In this document: one piece after another, positions 11,132 to 34,346 of the stretch
How the letters are laid out: every line of letters starts with the position of its first letter
Position numbering within the stretch: the stretch's first letter is position 1
Source: Melanopsichium pennsylvanicum
Lineage: Eukaryota > Basidiomycota > Ustilaginomycetes > Ustilaginales
Length of the DNA stretch: 64,000 nucleotides
Direction of reading: 5' to 3'
Assembly: GCA_900208305.1 (NCBI GenBank)
Contig: OAPG01000005.1
Location: 372,001-436,000, forward strand
Program-made: the position numbers and the translations under genes
The notes under the pieces: generated by a model
Databases searched by the model: none
Told to the model about the DNA's origin: nothing
The model's input: only the letters and a program-made list of their open reading frames with translations

Positions 11132-11561
11132 TGTTAGTGCCTACCAACCGGAGTCCAAAGAGGGGGTGCTCGGCCCCCCTCCTGATTGAGCGATCGTCGT
11201 GATCGGGCCCCGACCGACCCTCTCCGGACCCCTCGCAGCGGAGCGGTCGGCCTGACACGATCCTCCTACCGCCCAACCGCGGCTGGCCCCTCCGTACGTA
11301 GGATACGACCGTCGGCAACCTAACATTGTAACGCCGCGGTGGGAAGTGACCGATAGTTCCTGTACCTTACCACCCCGCCCCCGCCTGACATGAGGTTGCC
11401 TCCGGACCTCGTCGCATGTATTACTTAGTTAGCTCTATAGCAACGCAGTAGTGTGCTCTGACCCCCGACCGCCTGTGTCGCCCCGCCTACGACCTCTCCG
11501 TACCCGTAGCCTCCATCCCGGCTGTAGCCGCCCGCGGTATCTAGACCCTACAGCCTTAACA
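11132..11561 (+). repeat. Element 1, 5' LTR
   Basis: 430 bp, TGTT..AACA ends. Four differences from the 3' copy (three are C/T or G/A transitions). The interior string GTCGCATGTA at 11411-11420 is the exact reverse complement of the primer site at 11563-11572, which marks the likely transcript 5' end for self-priming. Confidence 0.95.
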
Positions 11562-11562
11562 T

Positions 11563-11572
11563 TACATGCGAC
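11563..11572 (+). promoter_or_regulatory. Element 1 self-priming primer-binding site
   Basis: TACATGCGAC starts one base after the 5' LTR and is a perfect reverse complement of LTR positions 11411-11420. There is no TGG start as expected for a tRNA primer. Tf1/sushi-type chromoviruses prime reverse transcription by folding the first ~11 nt of their own transcript onto such a site. Confidence 0.7.
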
Positions 11573-11600
11573 CTCCCCACGGGACGACGTCGTAACCAAG

Positions 11601-16396: not shown

Positions 16397-16578
16397 GCAC
16401 GGATACGAGCGACGGTTGCCGTCGGGAGACCCCCCGCCGGAGCCAAAACCCCTCCGGTCCCCGACCTCTTGGGTAGGAGACCCGGTCGGGCTCCTCTCAC
16501 CCCCACTCCCACACACGGACACACACACACCCAAGCGACAGAAAAGAAAACAAGTGCATTCGAGGAGGGGCCCCGGGG

Positions 16579-19500
16579 CTAGTCCCTCAGGAAGCCCTCC
16601 AACCACGCCCAGACCACGTCCACCTGCTGTCGCGTGTTCTGCGACAGTTGCTGGATCTCGCTGATCCGGCGGAGCTCTCGCTCGCCGCCGGTCCTCAGCG
16701 ACTCTGTCAGCAACAGCGCAGCCACGTCGGCCAGCCCCTGTTGAAATAACTCAGTCCCCTCCTGCACCCCGTGGAAGAGGGACTCGGCACGCCTTACGGC
16801 CGCACCCAGATCCCCCAGGCCCGTAGCGGACTCCCCCGGCTGGCCTTGGGCCCGCGCCCGAGTGCGGCGCCGCTCTCGGGCAGCCTCGGCTGGACGGTCG
16901 GGGCGAGACCTAGCTTGCTTGCGAGCCGCCTCCCGCTCCCGACCCACCGCGCCCACCCGAGCCACCTCCTCCCTCAGTTCCTCCTCCTCCTCCGGGATCT
17001 CGCCAAGTGTCCTCAGCGACAACCTGACGTTGGGGTGGGGGCGGCGACGCCGACCGACCCCTCCGGACCTCCACCTCTCAAGCAAGCACGCGTAAACCCT
17101 CATTCGGAGGGGACCTTGGGCGCCGCCAAGTGGTGGGACTGTCGAGGAAAACAAAAGGAGGAACAAGAGTCAGCCGACCACCCAAGACATCGCGACAGAC
17201 GCCCGACGGAAATACTTACCGCGCATATCCGCGTCGCAGGGTTGCCCATGGTGCCCCTGACACCGACGGCAGCGGAGATCGCCTCCCGCCCGCTCACAGG
17301 CAACGCCGGCGCATACGCTGTAAAGACAACACAGGCGAGGAGACTGACAATGTGAACTGGCAAACGAGACTGGGATTGATGATGGTGTCAAGACAACAAA
17401 GACAGTTGGACCACAAGAGTAATGAGCTAAGTGACTCCTGAGCACAAGCCATGTACACACGCAGTGCCTGCTCGTGAGAGGCTTGTGAAAGGGGCAAGGC
17501 CGGTGAGCACTGGCCGGGACTCGGCGAAGGCGGAAGCGGAAGGCCGGTGAGCACGTGACAAAGGTGAGCACGTGACAAGTGAGAAGGTGAGCACGTGACA
17601 AGTGAGCACGTGACACACCCCCTCCAAAGGAGAGAGCGTCTGCGCGAAAGAGAAGGAGAAGGGGGGCAGACAAGACGAACAAGACTGAGATGAAACGGCT
17701 CGCGTGGGTTGTACACAGCGAGAGACAAGACGGTCGAATGTGTTGTACAAGACGACGGAATTGATTGAACGGCTCGAGTGTGTTGGACACAACAAGAGAC
17801 AGAGATGATCGATTGTGTTGGACAAGTCGATAGGTGCGGCGGTCAAAGGTGTCCGAGGTGGCTAGGGTGGCTGCACTACGGACGATGAGTTTATGCAAAC
17901 ACGATTAAAGAAGTTCGGCGACCGCAATACTTAAGGGTGAAGTGTCCTCGGCGTCCTCTGCTGAGTCGATAGGGTTGAACAGCTGATCGCTGGCGGTCAC
18001 AAAAGGCCGAAGTCGTGAGTGGTGGACTCTGTTGGCCAAGGGTACGCCCTGTAGAGAGTGGAGTTGATAGCTGTTGTGGTAATGGTCGACCACACGGTAG
18101 GGACCGAGCCATCGTGCCTCAAGTTTGTTGCCAAATCCGTCAAGAGCATGATTTCAAAGGAGGACCAGGGACCCCGGAGAGAAAGGCTCAGAGATGCTGT
18201 GTCGAGTGTTCCACCTGTCGGCTCTGACCTTTTGTGCGGCCTGCAGCGCTGTCAAGGCCTCTTCTCTGGAGTCGGCGAGGAAGGCGAGGCGTAGCGTGAT
18301 ATCCGGATTGGAGATGTCGTCGGCCTGCCGACTGCTGAGCTTAGCCTGGTCGCTATGAAGGGACAGTTGGTCCCGAGGAACAAAACCAAAGAGAATTTCG
18401 GATGGCGATAAATTGGAGAGGTCGGGCATTGGTCGGCGGTTGAGGCTCATGAGAGCGTGCCGAAAGATGGAGGTGAAGGCGGACTGGGAGGTGTTGGATG
18501 GCACATCGGCGAGGGAAGTACGAAGACGGTCCCACAACAGACCGTGGCTTCGTTCGACTAATCCGTTGACCTGATGCGCGTATGGAGGGCTGAAATAAGT
18601 TGTGATGTGCCGTTCATTGCACCAGTCCGAGAAGGTGTTGTTGCGTTCGAAGAAATGATCTGCGATGATCGTGCTGGGCAAGCCGACCATCGTCTCTAAG
18701 TCCGACAACGCCTTGATTGCCACCTGGGTGTTGGGGGGTCGCTTGTGAAGCCATCCCCATACGTACCGAGTAACATAATCTACGACGACGAAGGCACCCT
18801 CGAATCCTGCGTGTCGGATAGTGACGAAGTCAATGCCGATTGTCACGGGAGTGGGTCCCAAGGGAAAGGTCTGCGCAGGGCAGAGATGTTGAATCGGCTG
18901 AGATCCGGTGGGAGAGCATGTCTCGACGGATCTCAGGGAGATCTGGTGGATATTGGTGGGCTCATGGGATTTAAGGTTAGCGCAGAACCGAGAAGTTGAA
19001 TCGGACGAAATCCGGTGAGAGAGCAGGTCTCGACGGATCTCACGGAAATTCGGCGAGTGGCAGTGACTTGCCGGATATCAAAGGTATCGATGGCAAGGGG
19101 AGCATCTGCGATGGCGGCGACCAACGCCACGCCGGAACGACACGTGGGCCAATCGACGCCCAGGGGGCAACGGAGAGGGAGCACGCGGGCGTGCTCGGAA
19201 GCACCCTGCCAAAGGACTAGGGGGCAGTCTTATCGTGCGGGGGTCCAAGCTCGACGCACGCAGGTCGTACAGTACCGATGGACCTCGCACACGATACATA
19301 TATATATAAATACTCTGTTCCCCGCTATCGGATGAGCGGAAGCTCATCCACTCTATCTTATATCTCAGTCACACATAGTTATCAGTACGTCGTACTTACC
19401 ATACTCTTCACACGTTGCACATCGCAATACCATTTATTGCGATCCATATAGTCTGTGTCCCCGTCGGTGAACGGAGAACAACGTATAGACGTTGTCGACA

Positions 19501-22500
19501 CCACAATCGACGCTGTAGCACCTCAACTACAGGCAGAACCTCAACCGCGGGCCTGGCACCACAACCAGTCCCTCATAACTCCACCGGCAACAACGGCTGA
19601 GGTCTAACCCAGCCATCAGCAGTATCCCGTCGACGTCGTGACACTCGCGTCGACCGAATACCCCGTCCGAGCTTGCCGCGTTACCTCTGTACGGAGTGTC
19701 ACCAGCGGTCAGCCGATATCCGTCGAGAGATTGCCACTCGCGGGATTCTCTTCGATATCCGTTGAGGCCAAGCTTAACCGCCGGAATTCACTGAAATCCG
19801 GCGAGTCGCGCTTTCTCACGGGAATTCGGATCTCTGGCACGCGACCGCTGACATTAGAGTGGATCGTACAAGCAACGCCCCAAGTTCACCAAGATGGCCG
19901 ACTCTGCACTACATGACAGACTCGACCGCCTCATCGCCCTCCTTGAGCAGCAGCAGGTAGACAATGCCGCCCTCAAGGCTCGGCTCGACCAACAGGAGAC
20001 TCCCTCCCCTGGTCGACGAGCTAGGGAGCATGATCTAAGCTCCCCGACCCGTCGAGCCTCGCAGCAGGCGGATGAGTCCTACCTCGGTGGTCTCGAGACA
20101 CCCACGCCTGCGACTAGACCACACCCTCGGTCCGTCACCTTCGACATTCTCGACCGACGAGCGTACACCGATCAAGAGAAGTACGCTACGCCTACTGGAC
20201 CTCGGTATGTCAAACCGGTGACCCCGGAGGCATGGACCGGCACTGGCAGTGAACAGGACACTCAGCCCCACGCTGCCCTCAAGACTCCATTCCCCAAGCT
20301 CGACACTCGCGACATCGATATCTTCATTCTCGAGGCCGACGCTTGGTTCAAGGCTAATGGTGTGTACGACCATACTTCGATGATCTTACACACGGCAGCC
20401 CAGCTCGAGGGCACCGCTCGAGAGTGGTGGAAGGGTAAGCTCCGCGTCGACCGGCATCGTCAAGGGATGCTCTTCCATGATTGGAGCCACTTCACCACTC
20501 GACTCAGGGAGCTGTACAATCAGCGCAGCGACAGGGTCGATGCCTACAACAAACTCCTAGCGTTGAGGCTTATTACCGACACACCAGGAGCAGCAACGCG
20601 ACATGTCGAGCAATTCCGGGACCTGGCAGCTCAGTGCCACATGGAGGACCCTGAGTTTGTCATCGACCTCTTCCGAGGGAGCCTTACTCGCTCACTTCAG
20701 GAGAAGTTCGAGCGTAACCCACCTGAAGACCAGTGGGCCTGGTACCGGGAGGTCGAGGACATTGATCGCCAGCGTATGCGGCATCAGCAGAATGCCGTCC
20801 GCTTCGCCCCAACCCCAGCAATCAGGACTGCTCATACTGAACCGGGCATTCCCCAGAGAACTGGCTCTCGACCGTTGCCCCCTCATCTGGCACAGAAGCT
20901 GCCGGTACGGGAAGCACCACCGAGACCTCGCGACGACCGAAGGGTCGTCCCCGGCCCAACGACATTTAACAGCGACGCCTGTAGGGTCTGCGGCAAGACC
21001 GGGCATTGGCAGCGGAACTGTCCAGACGCCAAGCCAACGGTTTACCCGTCTAGACCATCAGGACCACAGATGCGAGCGCACGTGGTGTTGGAGTCGGAGA
21101 AACCACAGGACGGCTCACCAGAGGAAGGAGACGGAGCTGAAGACCATCGCGAAGACGATGGCGGTCTTGAAGACCACTTTGACCCCAACCTCTTCACCGA
21201 CGATCACGACGCAGGCAAGCCCTACCACGAGGACAAGGGAAACGATCTTGGAGCGATGCAATGATGGCATGCATCGCTCTAAGACCGCCTTCGCCATCAC
21301 CTTGTATATGTCAGGATTGTTCATTATGTTTCTCTGCAGCTTCCGGTGCCTCAGTACTCGAACTAGCAGGTACGGTCAACCACCATCCTGCTAGCATTCT
21401 CGCCGACACCGGCGCTGCATTGTCTATAGTTTCAGCTCCGTTTGTTCGCAAGTACTCGATAACCACAAAACCCATAAAAAACAGAACCGTACACGGAGTG
21501 ACCGGACATTCCCTCACGATCACGAGCGCTGCTGACGTTGAAGTAGTCATAGGAGGACAACACCTAGGGATGCTCAAGGTCGCCGTCGCTGACGCTAGCG
21601 ACTATGATTTCATCCTGGGGTACGATGAACTACGACGCCTACAGCCAAGGGTCCATTGGGATACTGGACAGCTCGATTTCGGAAAAACCAACGAGATCCG
21701 GTCAGACGCGGTCGTTCAAGGGATTTCACCAAAATCCGCCGAGACCGGCCGATCTGCCGAATCTCGAGCAAACTTAGTAGTACATGGCTACGAGTTCGTC
21801 GACGCCAACGAGCTCGTTCAGGCGGCACTACGGGATGGCCCCATAGGGGTCATGCTAATCAGCGCTCCTCCGACGTCGCTCCCGTCGTTTGGCTTTGTCC
21901 CCACGGGAGGCGACAAAGGCATAGAGATGGAAACGACACTAGAAGAGCCTCCCACTGCCGTCGAAATCCCAGCCCCGTACTACCCCCTCAAGGATGTATT
22001 CGACGAGGTCGAAGCGGACAAGCTTCCCCCTCACACAAAGCACGACTTGCACATCGAGCTACTACCCAGTTCGACGCCACCTCAAGGTCCGCTATATCTC
22101 AAGGGACCTAAGGAGATGGCCGAGCTGAGGAAGTACCTCGAAGAGAATCTCGAGAAGGGATTCATTCGGCCCTCAAAGAGCCCGGCGCGATCCCCCGTCC
22201 TCTTCGTGCCTAAGAAGGACGGCGGCCTGCGACTCTGCGTAGACTACCGCGGTCTCAACGAGGTCACGGTTAAGAACCGAGCACCACTGCCCTTAATCGA
22301 GGAGCAGCTGTTCCTCCTACGAAAAGCGAAGATCTATACCAAGCTGGACCTAAAGGCAGCTTACAACTTGGTTAGGATCGCCGACGGGGACGAATGGAAA
22401 ACCGCGTTTGGAACTCAACTCGGACTGTATGAGTATCTGGTCATGCCATTCGGATTGGCAAATGCGCCCGCGCACTTCCAATCGCTCATCAACACCATCT

Positions 22501-25500
22501 ACCGCGACATCATTGGCGTATACGTGGTAGTATACCTTGACGACTTCCTGATCTTCAGCGACAACGAGAGGGAACACATCGAGCACGTCAGGACGGTGCT
22601 CAGTAGGCTCAAGGTATGGCGGTTATTTGCCAAACTCTCGAAGTGCGTGTTCCATACCGATACTGTTGAGTTCCTCGGTTACATCATCAAGCCGTCAGGT
22701 ATCGAGATGGACCCCGACAAGATCAGGACTATCAAGGAATGGCCAATGCCGGAGTCTATACACGACATCCAACGCTTCCTCGGGTTCGCCAACTTCTATC
22801 GCAGATTCATCTCTCACTTTGCACGTATAGCGAGACCGCTCACTTCCCTCGTTAAGCCCACAGAGCGATTCAAGAAGTTCGACCTCCCTGACGACGCTCG
22901 CGCTGCTTTCCACAAGCTGGTGGAAATGTTCACCACCGCTGGGGTTCTCAAGCACTTCGACTACCATCGTCCTACCCGGTTGGAAACGGACGCAAGCAAC
23001 TTCGCTCTCGCTGGAGTACTCAAACAAGAGCACGACGGACGATGGCACCCAATAGCATTCTACTCGTGCAAGATGGCATCGGCGGAGAAGAACTACGAGA
23101 TCCATGACAAGGAACTCCTCGCTGTTGTCGTCTGTCTCAACCACTGGCGGCACATGCTTGCAGGACTACCTAGTCAGCTCATTATTCTCACGGATCACGA
23201 GGCGCTCAAATACTTCAAGTCTCAGCGGAAGATCACAGGTCGGCAGGCTCGATGGTCAGTGTTACTCGCTGACTTCGACTTCGTACTCCAATACAGACCG
23301 GGAGATAAAGCGGGAGAGCCAGATGCGTTGACACGACGAAGTGATATGCAGCCGACCGCAGAAGAAGACCTCCACAACGTCCGGCAGCTGTTACCGGCAC
23401 GAGTATTTGCCGAGGATTTCGAAAACCGCCGAGTGGACTCAACTCGGCGGATTTCACCGAAATTCGCCAAGAAAGAGCTACTCGCCGAATCTCAAATAAA
23501 TATGCTAAAGCCAACGATGTCCGACATCGCGGAGGGAGGGCTGGTCCAACTCGTAAAGACTTTCCAGCCGCTCGATGCCGAGCTCGCAGAGCTTCATCAG
23601 AAGCAACCTTTCGAAGTTAGACATGGCCTGTGGTATCACGACGGTCGGCTAGTGGTGCCGCGAGTCACATTACCAGGTAAGAAGGGTCAACGCAACACTC
23701 GGAGTGCCGCCGAAGCAAAGGATCGCTCGCTCTCGGTGGAGCACCTGAGATACATGGTAATGTCCCAATGCCACGACGGCGCTACCGCTGGCCATGCAGG
23801 TCGAGACGCCACCCTCGAGCTCACAAGGCGGCATTATTGGTGGCCAAATATGGCGGCATGGGTTGCTGACTATGTAGCAAGCTGCCCAGTGTGCGCTCGA
23901 TATAAAGCACCGCGACACCGACCATATGGCCTTTTGCAGCCGCTGTCGACGCCGTCAAGACCCTGGAATTCCATCTCGATGGATTTCATTGAAGGGTTAC
24001 CTAAATCGGAGGGGTATGACTCGATCTTCGTAGTGGTCGACCGGTTGACCAAATATGCCATCTTAACCCCGACGTACAAGACGATAACGTCGGAGCAGAC
24101 GGCAAAGATGCTCAAAGACCAGGTTATGTCCCGTTTCGGGGTACCAGAGTACATTGTCTCAGACCGCGGCCGACAATTCGTCTCGGCGGCATGGAAAGAG
24201 TTCACCGCCAAGCTGGTCATCCACCACTTGCTCAGCACAGCCTACCACCCACAGACGGACGGGCAAACGGAGCGAGTCAATCAAGTTGTCGAGCAGTACC
24301 TCCGTATGTACTGCAACTACGAACAGGACAACTGGGTAACCTGGCTGCCGATGGCCAAGTTCGTTTACAACAACACGGTCCACAGCAGCATAGGAGTCTC
24401 GCCTTTCTTTGCTTGCTACGGGTGGAATCCAAAGTCACACCCCGATCTCCCAGAACAAGTCGGTGTGCTCGACCCCAAGAGAAAAGAGTTTGCCACCCGA
24501 AGAAAAGAATTTACGGAGTATCTACAGGAGCAAATCAGGTACGCTCAAAGCCAAACCGTTGAGCAATATAACCGCAAACGGAAGGACATCGAGTTCAAAG
24601 TTGGAGACATGGTCTACGTCAACCGAAAGAACTGGAAGACAGCTCGACCCAGTCCCAAACTCGACACAAGGTTAGCAGGCCCGTTCCCCATCCTCGAACG
24701 AGTCGGCAGAAGAGCATACCGGCTCCAACTCCCAGCAAGTTTGCGCGTACACAACGTTTTCCATGTCTCGATGCTCGAGCCTCAAAGGGCAAGCTCACTC
24801 CCACAGCGCTCCACACTCGAAGTCACGCCGCCCCTACCGGACGACACTCTAGAATTCGAAGTAGAGGCTATTGTGGGAAAGCAAAAACAGGGTAGGCAAG
24901 TACAGTACAAAGTCCAATGGAGGGGCTACCCCGAGGAGGCAGCCTCGTGGGAACCGACAGACTGTCTCAACTGCCCAGACCTCATCCGGGAGTATGAGGA
25001 ATCGGCGGGGGGACGGAGACACTAAGCTGAAGAGGATCTTGCGACGGAGACACTAAGCTGAAGAGGATCTTGCGAGCCGCAATGCATGCCATCACAGGAG
25101 AGTAAGATGGTGAGAAGCTCGACAAGGACGAAGCTCAACAAGGACGATGTCGAGCGGCAAAGGTAGAAGGTTGCAGGAATCGAGATCCGGACAATGACCC
25201 TGACTCAGGGAATTTCCACGAAATCCGCCGAGTACTGCAGAATTCAACGGATCTCAGAAAAAATTAAAAAAAAATCGCGGGGTAACGAGAACCTAAAAGT
25301 CACGAAATTCGCCGAGGAATGCATGATCCAAAGGATCTCAGGCCTTAACGGGCGATGCGAGTCGACAAGTATATTCCTCAGAGTCGTCGCACCTGTTGCA
25401 CACCGAAAGTCACACAATCAAGCTCACACTAGGTTCAATGGGTAACGAGGCACTGCCATTGCAACAAGTCGACACAGCCAGCGGGCACAGACTACTCCGC

Positions 25501-28500
25501 CGACTCGGGGGCTGACGAAGGCCCAGGCACCAAAGAAGGCTCGAGAGCCTCGAATGGCGAGCGCATAGACCGCACTCGCCGCTGACGATCGAAGTACTCC
25601 TCGATCATCGTCAGCACCGGGACTCGCCGACTACGAGGCGAGGCAGACCAAATGATGCGCATTGCATGTGCCCAGTGGGGGTCCGCCACACCATCCGAGT
25701 CACGGTCGATCCCACGTACCTCCCCCAATCCTCGACCTCCCGCTCCAGTGACGTGAGCTCGCTCGACGCCACGCTCGCCTCGATGCAGATGGCGAGGGGG
25801 AGCGTCGCCAGCGTATACCGTCGTTGGCAACGCCCTCACAGTACGCACGCATTTCTTGTGGCCGCCAAGGTGGCAGTGCACACAAGCGCGCGGAGTCCTG
25901 CCCTTGCCACCGGCAGAAAGTACGTCAGCGAAAGCCGACGCAAAACAACTGGGACAAAAAAGGGGAGAACCGCGGTCAGCAATGCGTATCGAACGGACAC
26001 AAGTATCAAACGGAGAAGGGAGCAGTAGTACTTACGGTATACCAAGCTTCGTGCATCGGGCGCATTGCCAGCTCGGCCAAGGCATGCAGCCCTCGGTCAG
26101 TCGAAGGAGGACCAGACGATGCAGCCGACCGGCCTTCACGGAACCCTCCAATACCTCCCAAGTAGGGGGCCAGGCCCCGCACGCCACGAACACCAGCAAC
26201 ACCGGAGCGATAAGTGACTCCGCCCACAGCGCAATCTCGAGGTAGTTGGGCACATGAGGCCCAACGAGCGGAGCGACAATCCTCCCTACAACCGACTCTT
26301 CCACCTCCATCGCCTCCAGCCGCTCTTCCTCCTCTTCCGTGGCGTCGTTCCCCAGGAACAACGGTTCCAGTGGTCGCGGCGTCGCCCGCAACGCGACGAG
26401 CTGCTCGGCAGCAACAATTTCGATGGGCTGCTCGCCAGCAGCAGGGGACAACGGAGTTGTGGCCTCGAGGCCGGCAGCCGAAAGTGTCGCCACTGCCCGA
26501 GTGGCAGGATCTCGTTCGCGAAGCCTGGCGCTACAACGCACAGGCTCGTCTGCCCGAAAGGCAGGCATTTGTGTCGACGCTGGTCGCAACGACGCAGCGG
26601 AAGTGGCAGTGTTTGAAGTGCTGGGCATTGTGATGTTTTGGGAAACGCTGTTGGTGGAAGAACAAGTCGGGGAAACACCCGCCGACCCTATTTAAGCCTC
26701 AACGGAGCTCGGCTCTCGAAGGGGGGGTAGTGTCACGGGAGTGGGTCCCAAGGGAAAGGTCTGCGCAGGGCAGAGATGTTGAATCGGCTGAGATCCGGTG
26801 GGAGAGCATGTCTCGACGGATCTCAGGGAGATCTGGTGGATATTGGTGGGCTCATGGGATTTAAGGTTAGCGCAGAACCGAGAAGTTGAATCGGACGAAA
26901 TCCGGTGAGAGAGCAGGTCTCGACGGATCTCACGGAAATTCGGCGAGTGGCAGTGACTTGCCGGATATCAAAGGTATCGATGGCAAGGGGAGCATCTGCG
27001 ATGGCGGCGACCAACGCCACGCCGGAACGACACGTGGGCCAATCGACGCCCAGGGGGCAACAGAGAGGGAGCACGCGGGCGTGCTCGGAAGCACCCTGCC
27101 AAAGGACTAGGGGGCAGTCTTATCGTGCGGGGGTCCAAGCTCGACGCACGCAGGTCGTACAGTACCGATGGACCTCGCACACGATACATATATATATAAA
27201 TACTCTGTTCCCCGCTATCGGATGAGCGGAAGCTCATCCACTCTATCTTATATCTCAGTCACACATAGTTATCAGTACGTCGTACTTACCATACTCTTCA
27301 CACGTTGCACATCGCAATACCATTTATTGCGATCCATATAGTCTGTGTCCCCGTCGGTGAACGGAGAACAACGTATAGACGTTGTCGACACCACAATCGA
27401 CGCTGTAGCACCTCAACTACAGGCAGAACCTCAACCGCGGGCCTGGCACCACAACCAGTCCCTCATAACTCCACCGGCAACAACGGCTGAGGTCTAACCC
27501 AGCCATCAGCAGTATCCCGTCGACGTCGTGACACTCGCGTCGACCGAATACCCCGTCCGAGCTTGCCGCGTTACCTCTGTACGGAGTGTCACCAGCGGTC
27601 AGCCGATATCCGTCGAGAGATTGCCACTCGCGGGATTCTCTTCGATATCCGTTGAGGCCAAGCTTAACCGCCGGAATTCACTGAAATCCGGCGAGTCGCG
27701 CTTTCTCACGGGAATTCGGATCTCTGGCACGCGACCGCTGACACCGATGACCTCCAGCGGCGTAGTGAATGTCAGAGGGCGAAGCTGAGCCACACTGTGA
27801 CTGGAACCCCCTTTGAACTTGGCACAGGTCAAGCAAGAGCGGCATAGCTCCTCCACGTCCTTGGATCGCGTCGACCACCACACGTTTAGATCGGCGAGGA
27901 CGAAGTCCTTGCTGAAGTGGCCATGGAGTTGGTGAGCATCGTTGGCCAGAGCTAGTCCTTCAGCGCGGGGAACAAGTCGCAAGCCACAGCGATGATGAAT
28001 GACTCCGTCCACGTAAGTGAAAGAGGTTGCGCGGTGCCTTAACTTCCGGATTGAGTCTGCGTCCAAGCCAGTCGTGTCGGCAAAGAGAAGGAAGCGGACA
28101 AGGTGTTGATCGGGATCACCCTCAAACTTTGCAAGGACGGTCAGAGCGTGGTTGTCGCGACCGACAAGGTCAGCAGTCGTTGCGAGAGTTGCGATGTGGA
28201 ACAAGCTGGCTGATACGTGTGACTCGTCGATGTGCAGGCCAGCGCGATGCACCAAGTCAGCAGGCTCCGGGTCTGCGGGCGATGAATTTATGGCGGGTCG
28301 ATGGGAGAGCTTGTGTGCGAGGGCATTGGCTGATCCGGGCAGGTGGCTGAACTTACGAATGTCGTATGATAGGATCAGGGCACGCCATCGTTGGTGGTGC
28401 GAAGTGCGTGGCGATAGTAGGAAGTCGCGAAGGGCAATGCAATCAGTGTGGAGGTGGATGCCGTGTGGATTGCCGATCAGGACCTTGTGGAGTTTCGTGA

Positions 28501-31500
28501 GAGCCCATTTGGCGCATACCGCCTCGAGGAGGAACGACTGGTATCTCTGCTCTGATGGCGCTGTCCGTCTGGAGATGAAGGCGACGGGCCTGAGAGTCTT
28601 GAACTCCGTGGCTGACATGGCCTTCGCGGCGAGTAAAGATTCGGGAGTACTCAGGTCGTTTGCGCGATCCGTTGTCGGGCTAGCGACCGGGGACTGGAAT
28701 AGGGCTGCGCCCATGCCTTCAAGGGAAGCGTCTGTGAAGATGATAAAGGGACGGTCATACTGGGGAGGTTTCACCGGCGGCGAGGAAGCGACAGCGACTT
28801 TGAGCCGGAGGAAGGATGCCTTTTCCACATCCGTCCAAGACCATTGTTGGCCAGGATGTTGAAGCGCTTTCTTCTTCGACAGGGGCTTGCCAGCCGGTGT
28901 AGAGGCGTCCAGATTGCGGATGAGTTTTTGGAGTGGTGCGGCAATACAAGCGAAGTCGCGAACAAGATGCCGGAGCGCGCTGCATGTCGATAAGAAGGCG
29001 AGGACCTGGTGTGGCGTCGTTGGGCGTGGCCAGTTGAGGATACCGGCTAGACGGTCTGGATCGGCCAAGATGCCTTTTGCCAAGATGATGGCACCACAAA
29101 ACTTCAAGGTTGGGGCTCCGAGGACTGTTTTCTTAGCCGAGAGCTTGAAGGACGACTGTCGGGCAAGGTCGAAGAGAGAACGGAGTGCTGCGATGTGGCT
29201 GGGCAGTGAGGATGCGGCGATACCAAAATCATCCATCCAAACGCGTACGACACTGCCAGGCGGAGGCCGAAGGAGGATGGGCTTGAAGATTGTGTTGACG
29301 AGCGTGAGGAAGGTGCCGGGTGAACCAGAGAGGCCAAATGGCAGACGAGTGAAATAAAAGAGGCGATTGGCGAGTGTGAAGGTCGTGAGCAGCTGCAAAT
29401 CAGGGTCGAGAGCGATGCTGTGGAAGCCAGCCATGGCATCACGTGTTGAAAAGAGGGGTCCACACGCGGCGATATCTTGGATTGCAGTGTCCATGTCTCC
29501 CAACGGGTGCGTGGCCGGAAGGTCGGTGGCCCGGTTGAGAGGAATGTAGTTGAAAACCAGGCGATACTTGCGCACGTGAGTCTGGGTAAGAGGCCGGCCG
29601 GGGTGAGACGCGTTAGAGCCGAGGTGGGACGCGTCGGTCGACTCCGCCGATTTAGTCGATCCATCTGATCCAACCGATCCAACCGATCCTACCGTTTTTA
29701 CCGATCTGGCCGATTTAGATGTTGCGGCCGATTTAATTCCAGGTTTGGGGAGTTTCGACGCGTCTTCCTGTGGCGTTGTCTCGGCCGTGTGGTTAGGCGG
29801 GTCAGCAGGCGAATCCCGGGCCACAGACTTACTTGATGCTTGTTCGCACCGACGGATGGCGTCTTGGAGCAATCGCTGGAGTTCTTCCTCTGAGCACGAG
29901 TTGACCGAGTGTCTCTCTTTCGGCACGACATGGCACGCCGATACCCAACGCACGTGGTCGGTACTACTAACCTCCTTGATGTAGCCGGCTGCTAAAAGGT
30001 TGTCAATCTCTGCGATTGCGAAAGCTCGTTCGTCTGGGCCAAGCGGCGGCGAGTTCTTGACTGCGACAGGGGTTGCATCCGCCTTGAGGACGATTCGATG
30101 CTGTAAGACGGGGCTGGGCTGAGCCATATCCGCCGTAGAAAGGGCGAAGACGTCTTGGTATTGCGTAACAAGATTCTTGAGAAGATTGACTGCAGCCGGA
30201 TCGTCGGCAGCAATTTGGACCGCGTCGAGGACCTGTGTTGCTCTTTCTCTGTTGTCCTGGACAGTAGGCGTTGGCGCATCGATGACGAATGCTCGCGATG
30301 CGGCCATGTGGCTGTGCCGACCTGCAGCAGGGTAGCATCATCGAGGACGGGATCGGTGACGTTGATGGCGGGATGGGGCTGCTTCTCGATGATGTCCAGC
30401 ATCACGAGAGGTGGCGGCGGTACAGGTTCTTTAGACCTGAGGGCGTTCGGTAGCGCTTGCCATCCAGCGATAGACCGAATGTAAAGAGAGTCACTTGAAT
30501 AAAGATGGACTGCTCCTGCCAACGTCTTCCACGGCTTGCCTAAGAGGAGTTCGTACGATCCCATGGAGTCAAGCACTTCGACTGAGATGTCGTGCGACGG
30601 GGCTGTGTTTGTGTTGCCAAACAAAGAGGTGTCGAAAGTCACCGTGAGTTCGATACGGCCGGAAGTGCGGATACGTTGCCCATTGGCCAACGTTGCAACG
30701 ACATTGGAGGACTGGAGCGGACTCAAACAGTCTGCATAGCGGCGATAAGTTGATAAATCGATGATATTAAGGACGGAACCCTCGTCGATGTGAGCCTTGA
30801 GAGGGATAGGTGGCTGTTGATCGCTATGTACATGGCGGGAGAGGAGTACGGGGACTATATATGGTGTTGTACTCCTTGCGAGGCGGTCTGTCAAGCTAAG
30901 TGAGGGGATAGGCGGAGTAGTTGGGCGGGATAAGCTAATAGGCAAAGGGGACGGCGGCCTTACTTTTGGTTGGGTGCTCCCTGTCCCCATTGGAGACACC
31001 CTGAAGCATTTCCCGAACCGATGTGAGGATCGGTGTCGATGAGGTTGTTGACGAAAGAGTCGCCATTGTAGTACGCAAAGCGTGGGTTGATGTCAATTAA
31101 GTCCGCGCTAGTGTCGGGCGAGCTGTTCTGCGATGACTGGCTGCTGTTGGAGGAGCCTGAGGGCGAAGAGCTTGCTCCTGAGCTGGAATGTCCTACATGA
31201 AGTGCGGCGCGTAGTTGGCGAGGTGCCCCGGATCGGATTGCAAGCCGCCTATACTGCTGCTCGGCAGTGGGCAGGGGGTTCTGTGCCTGGCAGTTGCTGG
31301 CGAAATGGTCACGCATGCCGCAACGGTGACACTCTCCTGAGCCGGGGGGCTGTGTGCCCGGTCGGAGAGGCCAGGCAACAGAAAGACTCGGAGTGACATA
31401 CCTGACTTGTTCGAGTGCCCGCTGATAGGCTCGGATGCCCTCTTGATCCGTGCTGAAAGTGCGAGGAGGGACGGGCGGGCCAGTTGGGCGGGCGATGGTC

Positions 31501-33565
31501 TGCGTGTTGTAGCGCCCGGCAACAGGTTGGACTGGTTGAGAGAGTCTGTTGTCGCTGTTGGCGGGTTGGCGGACGATGTTGGGCGGTCTCTGAGCCCGGG
31601 ACTGAACGAAGGGAGCGAGGTCGTCCGGCGTGAGTTTGGCAATCTCCTTGCATAGATCGCGCATCGTCTTGAATTGACTTGCTTGACTGCCGAGCGCAAG
31701 GATGAGAGGAGTCGGCAGCTTTGGGAAGAAGGATTTGATGATTCGATCTTGGCCGACGTCGGACGCAGGAATGCGGGCGGCCAAGTTGAAGGCGTCCCTG
31801 GCGAAGCGCTGAACAGGCGAGAGACCATCGGTACCGTGCACGGTCTTGGTGAGGTCGTTCTCAGATAAGTTGAGAGCCAGAAGGTCGGCGTAGCTGTCGC
31901 GGGCGTCCTGAACGTCGAATAGCGTGGGCCAGCGCTGGTGTCCGGCGGCGTCCAGACGTGCCCAGGTGTTCTTGTCGGGCTGGCTGAGGCTATCGAACCA
32001 GCGAGCTGCCACCGAGTCGTTGGCCAGGCAGAACTCGAACTCCTCGATCATGGCGGTGTCGCCGATGATGCCTCGAGAGTTGCAGAAGCGGCGGAACTTA
32101 CGACTGAAGGAGGACCAGGTGGTGTTCGCAGCGCCAGAGAATTTGGGGCGAGGCTCGGCAAGGACATAAGTGACGTTGTCCAAGCGTTGAGTCACAGGGC
32201 GCTGCTCGCTAGGCAGTGGGGTTGTGGTGCCGTCCTGGTCATGGAGACCAAGGACGTCGTCCTGCCCGGAGGTTGCGACGTTGCTCATGGAAGGCGAAAG
32301 GCTGAAGAGATCGTTCAAGGTTTGGGAGTTGAAGATAGAGAGGTCGAGGGAGTTGGACGGGGAGGGCTGCGAGGTTTCTTTCGGGGAGGTTTCGGCTCGT
32401 TGTGGCTGTTGCCTCAGAAGACGTTCTGGGTCGTTGAGTGGGATCAGAAGATTGGGCTGAGAGGCCCGGCGTGTTGTTCGAGGAGCGGAAATGGCGGAGA
32501 GAAGCGACTGAATGCGCAGAGGTGGTCGGTGGTCGGTGGTCGGTGGTCGGTGGTCGGTGGTCGGTGGTCAGTGGTCGGATGGTCAGAGAAGGGCTGGACG
32601 ATGGGCTGATTGATATGGAAGTGATCCTGTAGGCGTCGCCATGTAAAGACAACACAGGCGAGGAGACTGACAATGTGAACTGGCGAACGAGACTGGGATT
32701 GATGATGGTGTCAAGACAACAAAGACAGTTGGACCACAAGAGTAATGAGCTAAGTGACTCCTGAGCACAAGCCATGTACACACGCAGTGCCTGCTCGTGA
32801 GAGGCTCGTGAAAGGGGCAAGGCCGGTGAGCACGTGACAAAGGTGAGCACGTGACAAGTGAGAAGGTGAGCACGTGACAAGTGAGCACGTGACAACGCAG
32901 GCGTAGCAATCGCCCCACGTCTCGGCCCATAGCGGGGCAAGGTCTGTCGTATCGGCCACGGAAACACAAACGTCGGTAGCGATCCCAATCAACACAGCAA
33001 TGGAACAAATACTTACCATCACCAACGAGTTCCGGAGTGATCTCGATGGGAACCGAAGGACGCGACCACGGCATCAAATTCCGGGGCGCCAGGACGAGGG
33101 AAGTGTTGGCCGATGCAGAGGAAGGAATGGCCGACGGATCGGCAGACTGTTGACGCACGGCGCGCTTGCGACGGCCCGAGTTGGCCCCCCGGGAAAGGTG
33201 AGCACGCGGAGAACGGCGCACCCCCCGGATGGGACCAGCGGAGGTCTCCGACGGCCGATCTGTCGTAATCGAACAAGGGGGAGGGAACAAACGTCAGTAA
33301 CCCATTCCACGGCACCGACCGGTGGTTGTCAGGCCCTCTGGGCCCCCCATCCGCAACCGAATCACGACGGAACCACGATCGACTCACCTCCGGAAGCGGG
33401 TAACGTTGTTGTTGTTGTTGGTGCTATTGTTGTTGTTGCTGCTGCTGCTGTTGCCGACGCTGCCGCCGTCGCGGACGTAGGCAATGGAGGGGGAACGGTA
33501 CTGACACCGGCCAACGGGTTGTCGGCCGGGGAATCCATGGAAGCGTCTACTGGTGACGACGACAT
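16579..33565 (-). CDS. Element 1 antisense spliced gene with six-cysteine cluster (interrupted)
   Basis: Minus-strand exons are 33565-33388, 33259-33017, 32943-32899 joined to 17318-17220 (split by element 3), and 17138-16579. Introns start GTGAGT, GTAAGT and GTAAGT and end with ACAG. All three are phase 1, and the spliced total is exactly 375 codons with a single terminal stop. The protein has a Ser/Thr/Ala-rich N-terminus. It then has two cysteine clusters, CX2CX6C and CX2CX7C, separated by eight residues; this matches the spacing of a Zn2Cys6 binuclear cluster, though it lacks the usual basic residues. A charged Glu/Arg-rich, coiled-coil-like C-terminal half follows. An antisense TATAAGG (33676-33683) precedes the ATG. 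Element 3 splits the first cysteine cluster, so this copy is broken. The function is unknown. Confidence 0.7.
17319..17615 (-). repeat. Element 3, 3' LTR (with CACGTG array)
   Basis: 297 bp. Compared with the right-hand copy it has an extra 44 bp within a local duplication around the GGCCGGTGAGCAC string. Its U3 start carries repeated GTCACGTG motifs. Confidence 0.9.
18841..19853 (+). repeat. Element 2, 5' LTR
   Basis: 1013 bp. A TATA run (TATATATAAATA, about 19301-19312) lies some 35-45 nt before the predicted transcript start at 19346. That start is defined by ATCCACTCTA, the reverse complement of the primer site at 19855-19864. About 75 nt into the transcript is a perfect 9-bp hairpin (ATCGCAATA / TATTGCGAT, 19421-19443). 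Several copies of a short ATCCGGCGAG-type palindromic repeat lie in U3 and near the end. Confidence 0.95.
19855..19864 (+). promoter_or_regulatory. Element 2 self-priming primer-binding site
   Basis: TAGAGTGGAT starts one base after the LTR and pairs perfectly with LTR 19346-19355. Spacing and match length are the same as in element 1. Confidence 0.75.
19894..21264 (+). CDS. Element 2 Gag
   Basis: 456 residues. An N-terminal leucine-rich coiled coil (RLDRLIALLEQQQVDNAALK) precedes a Ty3/gypsy gag core around residues 130-290 (LEADAWFKANGVYD, then LEGTAREWWKGKLR). A CCHC knuckle CRVCGKTGHWQRNC lies near residue 350. The C-terminus is acidic. The stop TGA (21262-21264) overlaps the pol ATG. 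Confidence 0.93.
   Translation: MADSALHDRLDRLIALLEQQQVDNAALKARLDQQETPSPGRRAREHDLSSPTRRASQQADESYLGGLETPTPATRPHPRSVTFDILDRRAYTDQEKYATPTGPRYVKPVTPEAWTGTGSEQDTQPHAALKTPFPKLDTRDIDIFILEADAWFKANGVYDHTSMILHTAAQLEGTAREWWKGKLRVDRHRQGMLFHDWSHFTTRLRELYNQRSDRVDAYNKLLALRLITDTPGAATRHVEQFRDLAAQCHMEDPEFVIDLFRGSLTRSLQEKFERNPPEDQWAWYREVEDIDRQRMRHQQNAVRFAPTPAIRTAHTEPGIPQRTGSRPLPPHLAQKLPVREAPPRPRDDRRVVPGPTTFNSDACRVCGKTGHWQRNCPDAKPTVYPSRPSGPQMRAHVVLESEKPQDGSPEEGDGAEDHREDDGGLEDHFDPNLFTDDHDAGKPYHEDKGNDLGAMQ
21246..21284 (+). promoter_or_regulatory. Hairpin presenting the Gag-stop/Pol-start AUGA
   Basis: Arms 21246-21260 and 21270-21284 form a 15-bp stem with one G-U pair; the inner ten pairs (GAGCGATGCA / TGCATCGCTC) are perfect. 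The nine-base loop ATGATGGCA contains the pol start ATG (21261) and the Gag stop TGA (21262). No -1 slippery heptamer is present. This layout suggests coupled termination-reinitiation. Confidence 0.75.
21261..25025 (+). CDS. Element 2 Pol polyprotein with chromodomain
   Basis: 1254 residues. Protease ILADTGAALSIV lies near residues 46-57. The RT has LDLKAAYNLVRI and YLDD near residue 424. The RNase H has ETDASNFALAGVLKQ and ILTDHEALKYF. An HHCC finger (HDGATAGHAGRDATL..CPVCARYKAPRH) leads to the integrase with D in SMDFIEGLPK, D in VSDRGRQF and E in DGQTERVNQ. A C-terminal chromodomain (FEVEAIVGKQK..YKVQWRGYPEEAASWEP) ends the protein. Two linkers, protease-RT and RNase H-integrase, contain the element's short palindromic repeat translated as protein (GISPKSAETG and RRISPKFAK). 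All catalytic residues are present. Confidence 0.97.
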   Translation: MMACIALRPPSPSPCICQDCSLCFSAASGASVLELAGTVNHHPASILADTGAALSIVSAPFVRKYSITTKPIKNRTVHGVTGHSLTITSAADVEVVIGGQHLGMLKVAVADASDYDFILGYDELRRLQPRVHWDTGQLDFGKTNEIRSDAVVQGISPKSAETGRSAESRANLVVHGYEFVDANELVQAALRDGPIGVMLISAPPTSLPSFGFVPTGGDKGIEMETTLEEPPTAVEIPAPYYPLKDVFDEVEADKLPPHTKHDLHIELLPSSTPPQGPLYLKGPKEMAELRKYLEENLEKGFIRPSKSPARSPVLFVPKKDGGLRLCVDYRGLNEVTVKNRAPLPLIEEQLFLLRKAKIYTKLDLKAAYNLVRIADGDEWKTAFGTQLGLYEYLVMPFGLANAPAHFQSLINTIYRDIIGVYVVVYLDDFLIFSDNEREHIEHVRTVLSRLKVWRLFAKLSKCVFHTDTVEFLGYIIKPSGIEMDPDKIRTIKEWPMPESIHDIQRFLGFANFYRRFISHFARIARPLTSLVKPTERFKKFDLPDDARAAFHKLVEMFTTAGVLKHFDYHRPTRLETDASNFALAGVLKQEHDGRWHPIAFYSCKMASAEKNYEIHDKELLAVVVCLNHWRHMLAGLPSQLIILTDHEALKYFKSQRKITGRQARWSVLLADFDFVLQYRPGDKAGEPDALTRRSDMQPTAEEDLHNVRQLLPARVFAEDFENRRVDSTRRISPKFAKKELLAESQINMLKPTMSDIAEGGLVQLVKTFQPLDAELAELHQKQPFEVRHGLWYHDGRLVVPRVTLPGKKGQRNTRSAAEAKDRSLSVEHLRYMVMSQCHDGATAGHAGRDATLELTRRHYWWPNMAAWVADYVASCPVCARYKAPRHRPYGLLQPLSTPSRPWNSISMDFIEGLPKSEGYDSIFVVVDRLTKYAILTPTYKTITSEQTAKMLKDQVMSRFGVPEYIVSDRGRQFVSAAWKEFTAKLVIHHLLSTAYHPQTDGQTERVNQVVEQYLRMYCNYEQDNWVTWLPMAKFVYNNTVHSSIGVSPFFACYGWNPKSHPDLPEQVGVLDPKRKEFATRRKEFTEYLQEQIRYAQSQTVEQYNRKRKDIEFKVGDMVYVNRKNWKTARPSPKLDTRLAGPFPILERVGRRAYRLQLPASLRVHNVFHVSMLEPQRASSLPQRSTLEVTPPLPDDTLEFEVEAIVGKQKQGRQVQYKVQWRGYPEEAASWEPTDCLNCPDLIREYEESAGGRRH
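25012..25073 (+). repeat. 31-bp tandem duplication across the Pol stop codon
   Basis: The unit ACGGAGACACTAAGCTGAAG plus 11 further bases occurs twice in direct tandem; the Pol TAA is in the first copy. The duplication does not alter the protein. Confidence 0.8.
25492..26628 (-). CDS. Element 2 antisense spliced gene with six-cysteine cluster
   Basis: Exons 26628-26036 and 25948-25492 join to exactly 350 codons (349 residues). The intron (26035-25949) starts GTAAGT, has a TGCTGAC branch-like string and a T/C-rich tract, and ends CCCAG. A TTAAATA box (26690-26696, minus strand) lies about 65 nt before the ATG. The N-terminal half is Ala/Glu-rich with a hydrophobic stretch (SLIAPVLLVFVACGAW). 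Then come CARCTKLGIPC (CX2CX6C, with the splice junction just before the third Cys) and CVHCHLGGHKKC (CX2CX7C), 20 residues apart. The C-terminal part is charged. The cysteine spacing is the same as in the element 1 antisense protein. No function can be assigned; zinc binding is inferred. Confidence 0.7.
26715..26730 (+). promoter_or_regulatory. Element 2 polypurine tract
   Basis: CTCGAAGGGGGGGTAG lies directly upstream of the 3' LTR. Confidence 0.8.
26731..27743 (+). repeat. Element 2, 3' LTR
   Basis: 1013 bp and identical to the 5' LTR except for one observed base. It is followed by the second CCGAT target copy and the element 3 pol sequence. Confidence 0.95.
29992..30990 (-). CDS. Element 3 protease-region frame
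   Basis: This frame is -1 relative to Gag and starts with an ATG about 30 nt before the Gag stop. It contains a retropepsin-like region with IDEGSVLNIID in place of the usual D(S/T)G and the family's LLGKPW motif near residue 175. The Glu in the catalytic triplet suggests an inactive enzyme, or a mutation in this copy. The last third of the frame overlaps the pol frame and is probably not real protein; pol lies another -1 frame away. I see no canonical slippery heptamer, so how the frames were joined is unclear. Confidence 0.65.
   Translation of the reverse strand: MGTGSTQPKVRPPSPLPISLSRPTTPPIPSLSLTDRLARSTTPYIVPVLLSRHVHSDQQPPIPLKAHIDEGSVLNIIDLSTYRRYADCLSPLQSSNVVATLANGQRIRTSGRIELTVTFDTSLFGNTNTAPSHDISVEVLDSMGSYELLLGKPWKTLAGAVHLYSSDSLYIRSIAGWQALPNALRSKEPVPPPPLVMLDIIEKQPHPAINVTDPVLDDATLLQVGTATWPHREHSSSMRQRLLSRTTEKEQHRSSTRSKLLPTIRLQSIFSRILLRNTKTSSPFLRRIWLSPAPSYSIESSSRRMQPLSQSRTRRRLAQTNELSQSQRLTTF
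30960..32288 (-). CDS. Element 3 Gag
   Basis: 442 residues from the first ATG (32288); the longer open frame to 32318 starts with TTG. Gag core features appear around residues 60-200 (FSGAANTTWSSFSRKFRRFC, then WARLDAAGHQRWPTLFDV). A CCHC knuckle CHRCGMRDHFASNC lies near residue 335. A Ser-rich region follows. The frame ends with TAA, overlapped by the protease frame. Confidence 0.88.
   Translation of the reverse strand: MSNVATSGQDDVLGLHDQDGTTTPLPSEQRPVTQRLDNVTYVLAEPRPKFSGAANTTWSSFSRKFRRFCNSRGIIGDTAMIEEFEFCLANDSVAARWFDSLSQPDKNTWARLDAAGHQRWPTLFDVQDARDSYADLLALNLSENDLTKTVHGTDGLSPVQRFARDAFNLAARIPASDVGQDRIIKSFFPKLPTPLILALGSQASQFKTMRDLCKEIAKLTPDDLAPFVQSRAQRPPNIVRQPANSDNRLSQPVQPVAGRYNTQTIARPTGPPVPPRTFSTDQEGIRAYQRALEQVRYVTPSLSVAWPLRPGTQPPGSGECHRCGMRDHFASNCQAQNPLPTAEQQYRRLAIRSGAPRQLRAALHVGHSSSGASSSPSGSSNSSQSSQNSSPDTSADLIDINPRFAYYNGDSFVNNLIDTDPHIGSGNASGCLQWGQGAPNQK
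32521..32580. repeat. GGTGGTC heptamer tandem repeat in element 3 leader
   Basis: About eight copies of a 7-bp unit lie between the element 3 5' LTR and its gag start, that is, in the transcribed leader. Confidence 0.85.
32642..32894 (-). repeat. Element 3, 5' LTR (with CACGTG array)
   Basis: 253 bp. Four CACGTG boxes (32831, 32848, 32871, 32886) lie within 66 bp at the U3 end, each inside a near-identical GTGAGCACGTGACA unit. Confidence 0.9.
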
Positions 33566-33904
33566 TGCAAAAAAAGACAATCCAAGGAAGCGTCTGCTGG
33601 TGGCGACGACATTGCGAAAAAAAAAGAATGGGGAAGAATGGGGGAAATCGAGAAGGAAGACCCGTCGAACCCCATCCTTATATCCCTCCTCGATAGCTAC
33701 GCACGAGCAATGGCGCACAGTCAATTCCGCCGGTCCAAGGCATTGTGGGTGGTATTGCCTCATTGCTGCGCATCCGCGATTAAATTGCCAAGACGAGCGT
33801 CGCAACTTGTACAGAGAGGCGCCCCTGGCGCGGATTAAGGTTGAGGGAGTACGACCCCCCTCGCCCTCCTGTCCTATCAGCCGCCTGGGGACCAGTCGGC
33901 CTGA

Positions 33905-33916
33905 ACCGGGGGGTAA
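33905..33916 (+). promoter_or_regulatory. Element 1 polypurine tract
   Basis: ACCGGGGGGTAA lies immediately before the 3' LTR, in the position where plus-strand DNA synthesis is primed. Confidence 0.65.
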
Positions 33917-34346
33917 TGTTAGTGCCTACCAACCGGAGTCCAAAGAGGGGGTGCTCGGCCCCCCTCCCGATTGAGCGATCGTCGTGATCGGGCCCCAACC
34001 GACCCTCTCCGGACCCCTCGCAGCGGAGCGGTCGGCCTGACACGATCCTCCTACCGCCCAACCGCGGCTGGCCCCTCCGTACGTAGGATACGACCGTCGG
34101 CAACCTAACATTGTAACGCCGCGGTGGGAAGTGACCGATAGTTCCTGTACCTTACCACCCCGCCCCCGCCTGACATGAGGTTGCCTCCGGACCTCGTCGC
34201 ATGTATTACTTAGTTAGCTCTATAGCAACGCAGTAGTGTGCTCTGACCCCCGACCGCCTGTGTTGCCCCGCCTACGACCTCTCCGTACCCGTAGCCTCCA
34301 TCCCGGCTGTAGCCGCCCGCGGTATCTAGAACCTACAGCCTTAACA
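33917..34346 (+). repeat. Element 1, 3' LTR
   Basis: 430 bp, matching 11132-11561 at all but four positions. It is followed by the second GGGGG target-site copy. Confidence 0.95.

What the first reader, a model, noticed from the sequence alone, without database searches (positions are those of the whole stretch)
16579..33565. Element 1 carries an analogous antisense gene: four exons, all introns phase 1, same cysteine spacing
In an element whose LTR and primer sequence differ from element 2, the same slot (pol to 3' LTR, antisense) again holds a TATA-like box, ATG and spliceable exons summing to exactly 375 codons. This holds once element 3 is removed. Three independent introns preserving the frame by chance is unlikely. 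The product has CX2CX6C-x8-CX2CX7C, and the element 2 product has CX2CX6C-x20-CX2CX7C. The spacing equals the Zn2Cys6 (Gal4-type) consensus. A shared antisense zinc-cluster protein across two chromovirus lineages would be a new accessory system, perhaps regulating LTR transcription or host silencing.
Basis: partly seen in the sequence, partly recalled or inferred. Interest (0 to 1): 0.88.

Follow-up and report, generated by a model that had tools for sequence, protein, structure and literature searches.

The report
Backwards spliced gene in smut retrotransposon
Two families of virus-like jumping genes in a smut fungus each carry an extra, intron-containing gene written backwards between their polymerase gene and their end repeat; its frame is kept across copies and it encodes a cysteine-rich, probably zinc-binding protein of unknown job.

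Summary
The window is from the smut Melanopsichium pennsylvanicum. Element 1 is a chromovirus; between its pol and 3' LTR lies an antisense gene of 4 exons (178+243+144+560 bp = 375 codons with stop), all introns phase 1. Here exon 3 is split by a minus-strand element (17319-32894) that itself holds element 2. Exon length changes are multiples of three in 8 of 9 copies; intron changes are not. Within element 1's young copies selection is weak (dN/dS 0.62). Element 2's antisense gene (349 aa, one intron, database protein MEPE_02721) is under clear purifying selection (0.30; 0.13 around the Cys) and has Ustilago relatives. The two products share cysteine spacing but no detectable homology, and Pfam's Zn2Cys6 model recognises neither. 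So: real antisense accessory genes and a plausible zinc-binding regulator; 'Gal4-type' and 'one shared system' are not shown. My searches found no earlier report in fungi.

The parts
11132..34346 (+). Element 1, chromovirus (Ty3) with 430-bp LTRs 11132-11561 and 33917-34346; TSD GGGGG
11433..12836 (+). Element 1 gag (Ty3 capsid, Retrotrans_gag; zinc knuckle just under its cut-off)
12800..16396 (+). Element 1 pol, 1198 codons open: protease, RT, RNase H, integrase, chromodomain (30.7 bits, cut-off 25.1)
33676..33683 (-). TATA box ATATAAGG of the antisense gene; identical in 35 of 35 other copies
33388..33565 (-). Antisense gene exon 1 (178 bp, Ser/Thr/Pro/Ala-rich N-terminus)
33017..33259 (-). 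Antisense gene exon 2 (243 bp, phase 1-1)
32895..32943 (-). Exon 3, first part (with one TSD copy), up to the insertion
17319..32894 (-).
17220..17318 (-). Exon 3, second part (with the other TSD copy), holding the rest of the Cys motif
16579..17138 (-). Antisense gene exon 4 (560 bp with stop TAG; charge-rich C-terminus)
18841..27743 (+). Element 2, chromovirus of family B; 1013-bp LTRs 18841-19853 and 26731-27743; TSD CCGAT
26036..26628 (-). Element 2 antisense gene, exon 1 (593 bp), ending inside the codon of the third Cys
25492..25948 (-). Element 2 antisense gene, exon 2 (457 bp with stop), after an 87-bp intron; whole product identical to database protein MEPE_02721

Best explanation
Both chromoviruses carry a genuine accessory gene on the strand opposite to gag and pol, between pol and the 3' LTR. 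Shown by sequence: a fixed TATA box, conserved GT-AG introns and a conserved frame in element 1; purifying selection and conservation in another genus for element 2. Inferred: a transcript starts near the 3' LTR, is spliced, and yields a protein with a disordered N-terminus, a six-cysteine zinc-binding module and a charged C-terminus. The introns can persist through retrotransposition because the genomic RNA reads them from the other strand and does not splice them. Most likely job (inferred): a nuclear, nucleic-acid-binding regulator of the element's own sense transcription or of its silencing, working like HBZ of HTLV-1 or the antisense proteins of plant Retand/Grande elements, without being related to them.
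For: 33 of 35 uninterrupted copies open, 31 of 35 with ATG and all splice dinucleotides; TATA 35 of 35; a CTNAY branch-like site 33-40 bases before the acceptor in at least 33 of 35 copies for each intron; exon length changes in frame in 8 of 9 copies, no indel in exons 3 and 4; six Cys invariant in 33 of 33. Fewer missense (137 against 173 expected) and stop changes (2 against 6.6) than the mutation pattern of neighbouring non-coding DNA predicts, synonymous as expected (89 against 87). Element 2: dN/dS 0.30 (bootstrap 0.22-0.38), 0.13 over codons 180-245; Ustilago relatives, 39-42% identical over the alignment, with all six Cys.
Against: No transcript could be looked for with these tools, and in U. 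hordei only 27 of 904 LTR elements showed expression in the two conditions tested (PMC9603552, passage). In element 1 dN/dS is 0.62 over 33 copies (0.45-0.86) but 0.70 (0.49-1.04) in the 25 copies where pol was measured too (pol 0.51); the first 58 codons have more missense changes than expected (33 against 26), and the Cys codons alone show 0 against only 2.0 expected. All four further copies of element 2's gene that I read carry stops. No DNA-binding family is recognised; structure models are weak (mean pLDDT 35.9 and 45.2) and that of element 1's Cys exon shows a helix and a hairpin rather than two Cys helices; CGG-n-CCG sites are not enriched in the LTRs. Family C, 84% identical to B over 465 aa of RT-RNase H, lacks the gene in the one copy read, so elements of that type seem able to do without.
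Confidence: 0.58

Rival explanations
1. The antisense protein is a structural or particle-associated accessory factor (an extra nucleocapsid-like or env-like protein), not a transcription regulator. The Cys module would bind RNA.
For: The slot is where env-like genes sit in other Ty3 elements (recalled); Cys-rich modules also bind RNA (recalled); no DNA-binding family is recognised.
Against: No gag-like Pfam match in the antisense proteins. A separate antisense promoter would be an odd way to make a particle protein.
Confidence: 0.15
2. The active product is the antisense RNA (interference with the sense RNA), and the open frame is incidental.
For: A conserved antisense TATA box in 35 of 35 copies; non-coding antisense RNAs from transposons are reported in the fungus Blumeria hordei (PMC10648671, search listing and start of abstract).
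Against: An RNA-only role does not explain frame-keeping exon changes and conserved splice sites, or element 2's dN/dS of 0.30 and its conservation as protein in Ustilago.
Confidence: 0.06
3. Two unrelated host or passenger genes were captured in the same slot; the Cys pattern is convergent zinc binding and the genes give the element little benefit.
For: No detectable homology between the two products; different intron positions; the closely related family C copy does without the gene.
Against: Purifying selection on the element 2 gene and a protein cluster of 75 member sequences in Ustilago sp. UG-2017a point to upkeep over many transpositions; a passenger should decay.
Confidence: 0.18
4. 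Chance open frames without a gene.
For: In one copy alone a reader can choose splice sites freely.
Against: Conservation in 35 other copies and in another genus; element 2's product is letter for letter a database gene model.
Confidence: 0.03

Closest known systems
Antisense ORFs of plant Retand-lineage Ty3 elements (TRP28 domain) and of maize Grande and rice RIRE2, PMC11963269 (abstract and passages seen)
   Same: Antisense gene between pol and 3' LTR of a Ty3 element; suspected DNA-binding or regulatory product; the Grande product is nuclear and, by the title of the paper cited there, has its own promoter.
   Different: Plants, non-chromovirus lineage, TRP28-type products. Here chromoviruses of a fungus, four-exon and two-exon genes, six-Cys products without a Pfam family.
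HBZ of HTLV-1 (its nuclear location mentioned in PMC11963269; its splicing and bZIP domain recalled)
   Same: Antisense, spliced, starts near the 3' LTR, encodes a small nuclear regulator.
   Different: A bZIP protein of an animal retrovirus; no sequence relation was tested or is claimed.
Steamer-like Element-1 antisense mRNA of the mussel Mytilus chilensis, PMC10974842 (search listing and start of abstract only)
   Same: An LTR retrotransposon with a reported antisense mRNA.
   Different: Animal element; I did not read what, if anything, it encodes or whether it is spliced.
Fungal Zn2Cys6 (Gal4-type) transcription factors, Pfam PF00172
   Same: CX2CX6C-xn-CX2CX7C spacing; in element 1 a charge-rich region follows, as linker and coiled coil do in Gal4 (recalled).
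   Different: No Pfam match, no basic stretch between Cys 2 and Cys 3, linker of 18-20 residues in family B.

Membership tests
Chromovirus (Ty3 with chromodomain) | gag-pol with PR-RT-RH-INT order and a C-terminal chromodomain; LTRs with TSD | tested here: met
   Element 1: Pfam order and Chromo 30.7 bits (cut-off 25.1); element 2 Chromo 51.1 bits; TSDs
Fungal Zn2Cys6 (Gal4-type, PF00172) | Cys spacing CX2CX6CX(5-12)CX2CX(6-8)C (range recalled) | tested here: inconclusive
   Element 1 fits (x8, X7); element 2 has x20 and Ustilago P0033 x18, outside the recalled range
Fungal Zn2Cys6 (Gal4-type, PF00172) | Recognised by the family profile | tested here: not met
   Element 1: no match at E up to 10; element 2 P0008 and sister copy P0009: E 5.3 and 3.5, 7.7 and 8.3 bits, cut-off 21
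Fungal Zn2Cys6 (Gal4-type, PF00172) | Basic DNA-contact residues between Cys 2 and Cys 3 (recalled) | tested here: not met
   VCAGVA in element 1, TKLGIP in element 2, FNLGIP in Ustilago P0033
Fungal Zn2Cys6 (Gal4-type, PF00172) | Two-zinc cluster fold | tested here: inconclusive
   AlphaFold models too weak: mean pLDDT 35.9 and 45.2; the Cys parts are among the better-scored stretches; no fold search was run
Antisense accessory gene between pol and 3' LTR (arrangement) | Position and orientation | tested here: met
Retand antisense-ORF elements | Non-chromovirus Ty3 lineage (PMC11963269, abstract) | tested here: not met
   Both host elements have a chromodomain
Retand antisense-ORF elements | TRP28 domain in the antisense product | not tested
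   No Pfam family was found in the products, but a TRP28 model was not compared

The most novel reading that the evidence does not exclude
Smut chromoviruses have, at least twice, fixed a spliced antisense gene for a zinc-cluster protein that acts in trans on the element's own LTR or on host silencing. The cassette-like, phase 1-1 Cys exon of element 1 could make two isoforms, with and without the zinc module, by exon skipping: an on/off switch inside a retrotransposon.
Probability: 0.25. Interest if true: 0.82.

Novelty: new variant of a known kind. Interest (0 to 1): 0.62.

Why it matters
If transcribed as modelled, this extends antisense accessory genes from plant Ty3 elements and deltaretroviruses to fungal chromoviruses, and does so with introns that survive retrotransposition only because they lie antisense. 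It gives a compact system: three chromovirus families in one genome, two with the gene and one, 84% identical in RT-RNase H to one of the two, without it in the copy read. That makes it directly testable what such a gene does for an element.

Tried and rejected
Chance frames: rejected by the copies. Gal4-type membership: not met on profile and basic residues. Homology of the two products: profile-profile comparison gave only a 27-column match of probability 1.5% (E 0.034) that pairs the second half of one motif with the first half of the other; no BLASTP match better than E 0.8. PDB by sequence: nothing better than E 0.47 for element 1 and 0.38 for the family B profile. NCBIfam, four proteins: nothing near a cut-off. 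Viral contigs with alignment A3: 60 pattern matches, no relative. CGG-n-CCG half-sites in the LTRs: 9, 9 and 10 against single-base shuffle means 7.8, 7.0 and 9.9. Fold searches were not run because both models are too weak.

Searches looked for antisense genes in fungal or chromovirus elements; I found no antisense coding gene of a fungal element in the listings (one search showed 15 of 29 papers; the others showed all they found: 1, 3, 0, 0 and 8). Searches looked for the species and its annotation. Only PMC11963269 (abstract, passages) and PMC9603552 (passages) were opened.

Full report
What the window is. The assembly has 21.1 Mb in 61 contigs. Proteins of these elements are named Melanopsichium pennsylvanicum in the databases, on contigs of the same lengths as in this assembly, so the host is that smut. 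Three LTR elements are nested. Element 1 (+, 11132-34346, TSD GGGGG) is a chromovirus with gag and a 1198-codon pol. A minus-strand element (17319-32894, TSD ACGC) inserted into it, and element 2 (+, 18841-27743, TSD CCGAT), another chromovirus, inserted into that.

The observation. Between element 1's pol and its 3' LTR the minus strand holds ATATAAGG, an ATG 118 bp further on, and four exons of 178, 243, 144 and 560 bp with consensus donors and acceptors; all three introns are in phase 1 and the sum is 375 codons with the stop. The minus-strand element sits inside exon 3, just after the second Cys codon of the motif.

The refutation test. Both halves of the slot were searched in the genome separately (both score only their best 40 candidates, so counts are lower bounds). 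One search found the 3' half complete in 36 places, the window included; the 35 others are uninterrupted and all 35 were read (29, 6 more). The partial matches were not read. The frame is open in 33 of 35. L032 has a 5-bp deletion in exon 1 and L036 a stop at codon 288. Two of the 33 are flawed in other ways: L017 has ATT for ATG, L023 AT for the first GT, so 31 of 35 are intact in every respect tested. Nine copies depart from the commonest exon lengths, eight of them by multiples of three; introns vary by one or two bases (128-130, 72-73, 80-81). Exons 3 and 4 have no indel in any of the 35. In L015, the one copy tested, each intron would bring an in-frame stop if retained. The six cysteines are invariant in the 33 open copies.

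Selection, told both ways. Over 33 copies dN/dS is 0.62 (bootstrap over codons 0.45-0.86) and 0.54 (0.37-0.82) without the low-complexity N-terminus. Pol was within reach only for the 29 copies; in the 25 of these left for the comparison the antisense gene has 0.70 (0.49-1.04) and the last 500 codons of pol 0.51 (0.40-0.67) (L011 and L033 dropped for gaps, L032 and L036 as broken; one kept copy, L038, aligns poorly over part of pol). Against the mutation pattern of the neighbouring non-coding bases, missense changes are 137 against 173 expected, stops 2 against 6.6, synonymous 89 against 87; the deficit is clearest from codon 191 on (48 missense against 81), while the first 58 codons show an excess (33 against 26). 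The Cys codons alone prove little: 0 changes against 2.0 expected. Copies this young cannot show more.

Element 2 gives the stronger case. Its antisense gene (exon 1 26628-26036, 87-bp intron, exon 2 25948-25492) yields 349 aa, identical to database protein MEPE_02721. One search lists 29 full-length matches, the window's included; I could read 4 of the other 28, with 86-92% identity. These and the window's give dN/dS 0.30 (0.22-0.38), lowest, 0.13, over codons 180-245, which hold the Cys motif, although all four carry stops and are decaying. Exon 2 keeps 457 bp in all five and exon 1 has 593 or 614 (21 more), while the intron has 87, 87, 71, 76 and 71. Database models P0008-P0011, nine member sequences, are full-length with all six Cys. 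Relatives occur outside the genus: of 46 proteins found with alignment A3 (best 7995 candidates scored), 25 are Melanopsichium and 21 are not; 18 of the 21 are named Ustilago species, two of them weak (E 0.0067 and 0.17), and three have no name. Of the 13 non-Melanopsichium proteins that I aligned, six have all six cysteines (P0033, P0034, P0035, P0037, P0038, P0040); the other seven are cut, spliced differently or altered there. P0033 stands for 75 member sequences in Ustilago sp. UG-2017a, as expected of a mobile gene. P0036 ends at the residue where element 2's first exon runs into its intron, so the intron position is probably shared. The Ustilago genomic context could not be read. The element 1 protein, in contrast, found only Melanopsichium: 7 hits at E up to 1 among the 7991 best candidates.

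One system or two? The Cys spacing is the same within each half and very unlikely for these compositions (a shuffle does not model clustering of Cys). Beyond that no homology is detectable, and intron positions differ: element 1 has the whole motif in one exon, element 2 splits the third Cys codon. Pol of the two is 39% identical over 1237 aa. Either very old common descent or convergent zinc binding fits.

Family C. A third chromovirus family (pol frame 1291 codons; chromodomain-like end in L075, not run against Pfam) is 84% identical to B over 465 aa of RT-RNase H and 54% to A over 479. In the one copy read, the stretch from pol stop to 3' LTR is about 456 bp (L075:532-987, LTR start inferred from the paired matches); its only match to B's slot better than E 0.1 is 28 bp at the LTR edge, and B's protein finds nothing there (E 0.84 at best). 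So the gene seems gained or lost within a close group and not needed by all such elements.

How it may work. The antisense position explains why introns persist: the genomic RNA carries their reverse complement and does not splice them (established biology of retroelements, and what the copies show). A transcript from the TATA box near the 3' LTR would be spliced to a protein with a Ser/Thr/Pro/Ala-rich N-terminus, a Cys module and a charged C-terminus. I take a regulator of the element's own expression as most likely, by analogy of position with HBZ and the plant antisense proteins; this step is inference. Database models P0001-P0004 leave out exon 3, P0005 and P0007 keep it. Since exon 3 is phase 1-1, skipping keeps the frame; whether these models rest on RNA is not known to me. 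A caution: in U. hordei only 27 of 904 LTR elements were expressed in two conditions (PMC9603552, passage).

Novelty. Antisense genes in this slot are known from plant Retand-lineage elements (PMC11963269, abstract and passages) and suggested there to be regulatory. In the listings I found no antisense coding gene reported for a fungal LTR element; the nearest were non-coding antisense transposon RNAs in Blumeria (PMC10648671) and an antisense mRNA of a mussel element (PMC10974842), both seen as listings only. Most subscription papers are not in that library. I therefore call it a new variant of a known kind.

Noticed in passing
L075:532-987 and L082 (family C chromovirus): Family C is 84% identical to element 2's family in RT-RNase H but, in the copy read, has a 456-bp pol-to-LTR stretch without the antisense gene.
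   Followed up: partly
33565-33612: A duplication of about 47 bp at the start codon puts a second, out-of-frame ATG at 33612 upstream of the start; 12 of the 35 other copies show a 47- or 49-column gap there. It may act as an upstream ORF.
   Followed up: no
17319-17615 and 32642-32894: The LTRs of the minus-strand element are 99% alike over 192 bp but differ by 44 bp in length, apparently in a region of TGTCACGTGCTCAC repeats.
   Followed up: no
P0001-P0004 against P0005 and P0007: Database gene models of element 1's antisense gene differ in keeping or skipping the Cys exon.
   Followed up: partly
P0007 (MEPE_01710) and P0032 (MEPE_05452): Database models that fuse antisense-gene exons to a staphylococcal-nuclease/Tudor protein and to a pol chromodomain; probably annotation fusions at element edges.
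   Followed up: no
P0048: A family B relative in Ustilago bromivora is named 'related to Mig1 protein'; its 237 aa hold only the N-terminal part of the antisense protein.
   Followed up: no
L076, L079, L080, L081: Older copies of element 2's antisense gene carry stops, several of which look like C-to-T changes, and CpG sites mutate most in element 1's slot, as if copies had been methylated.
   Followed up: no
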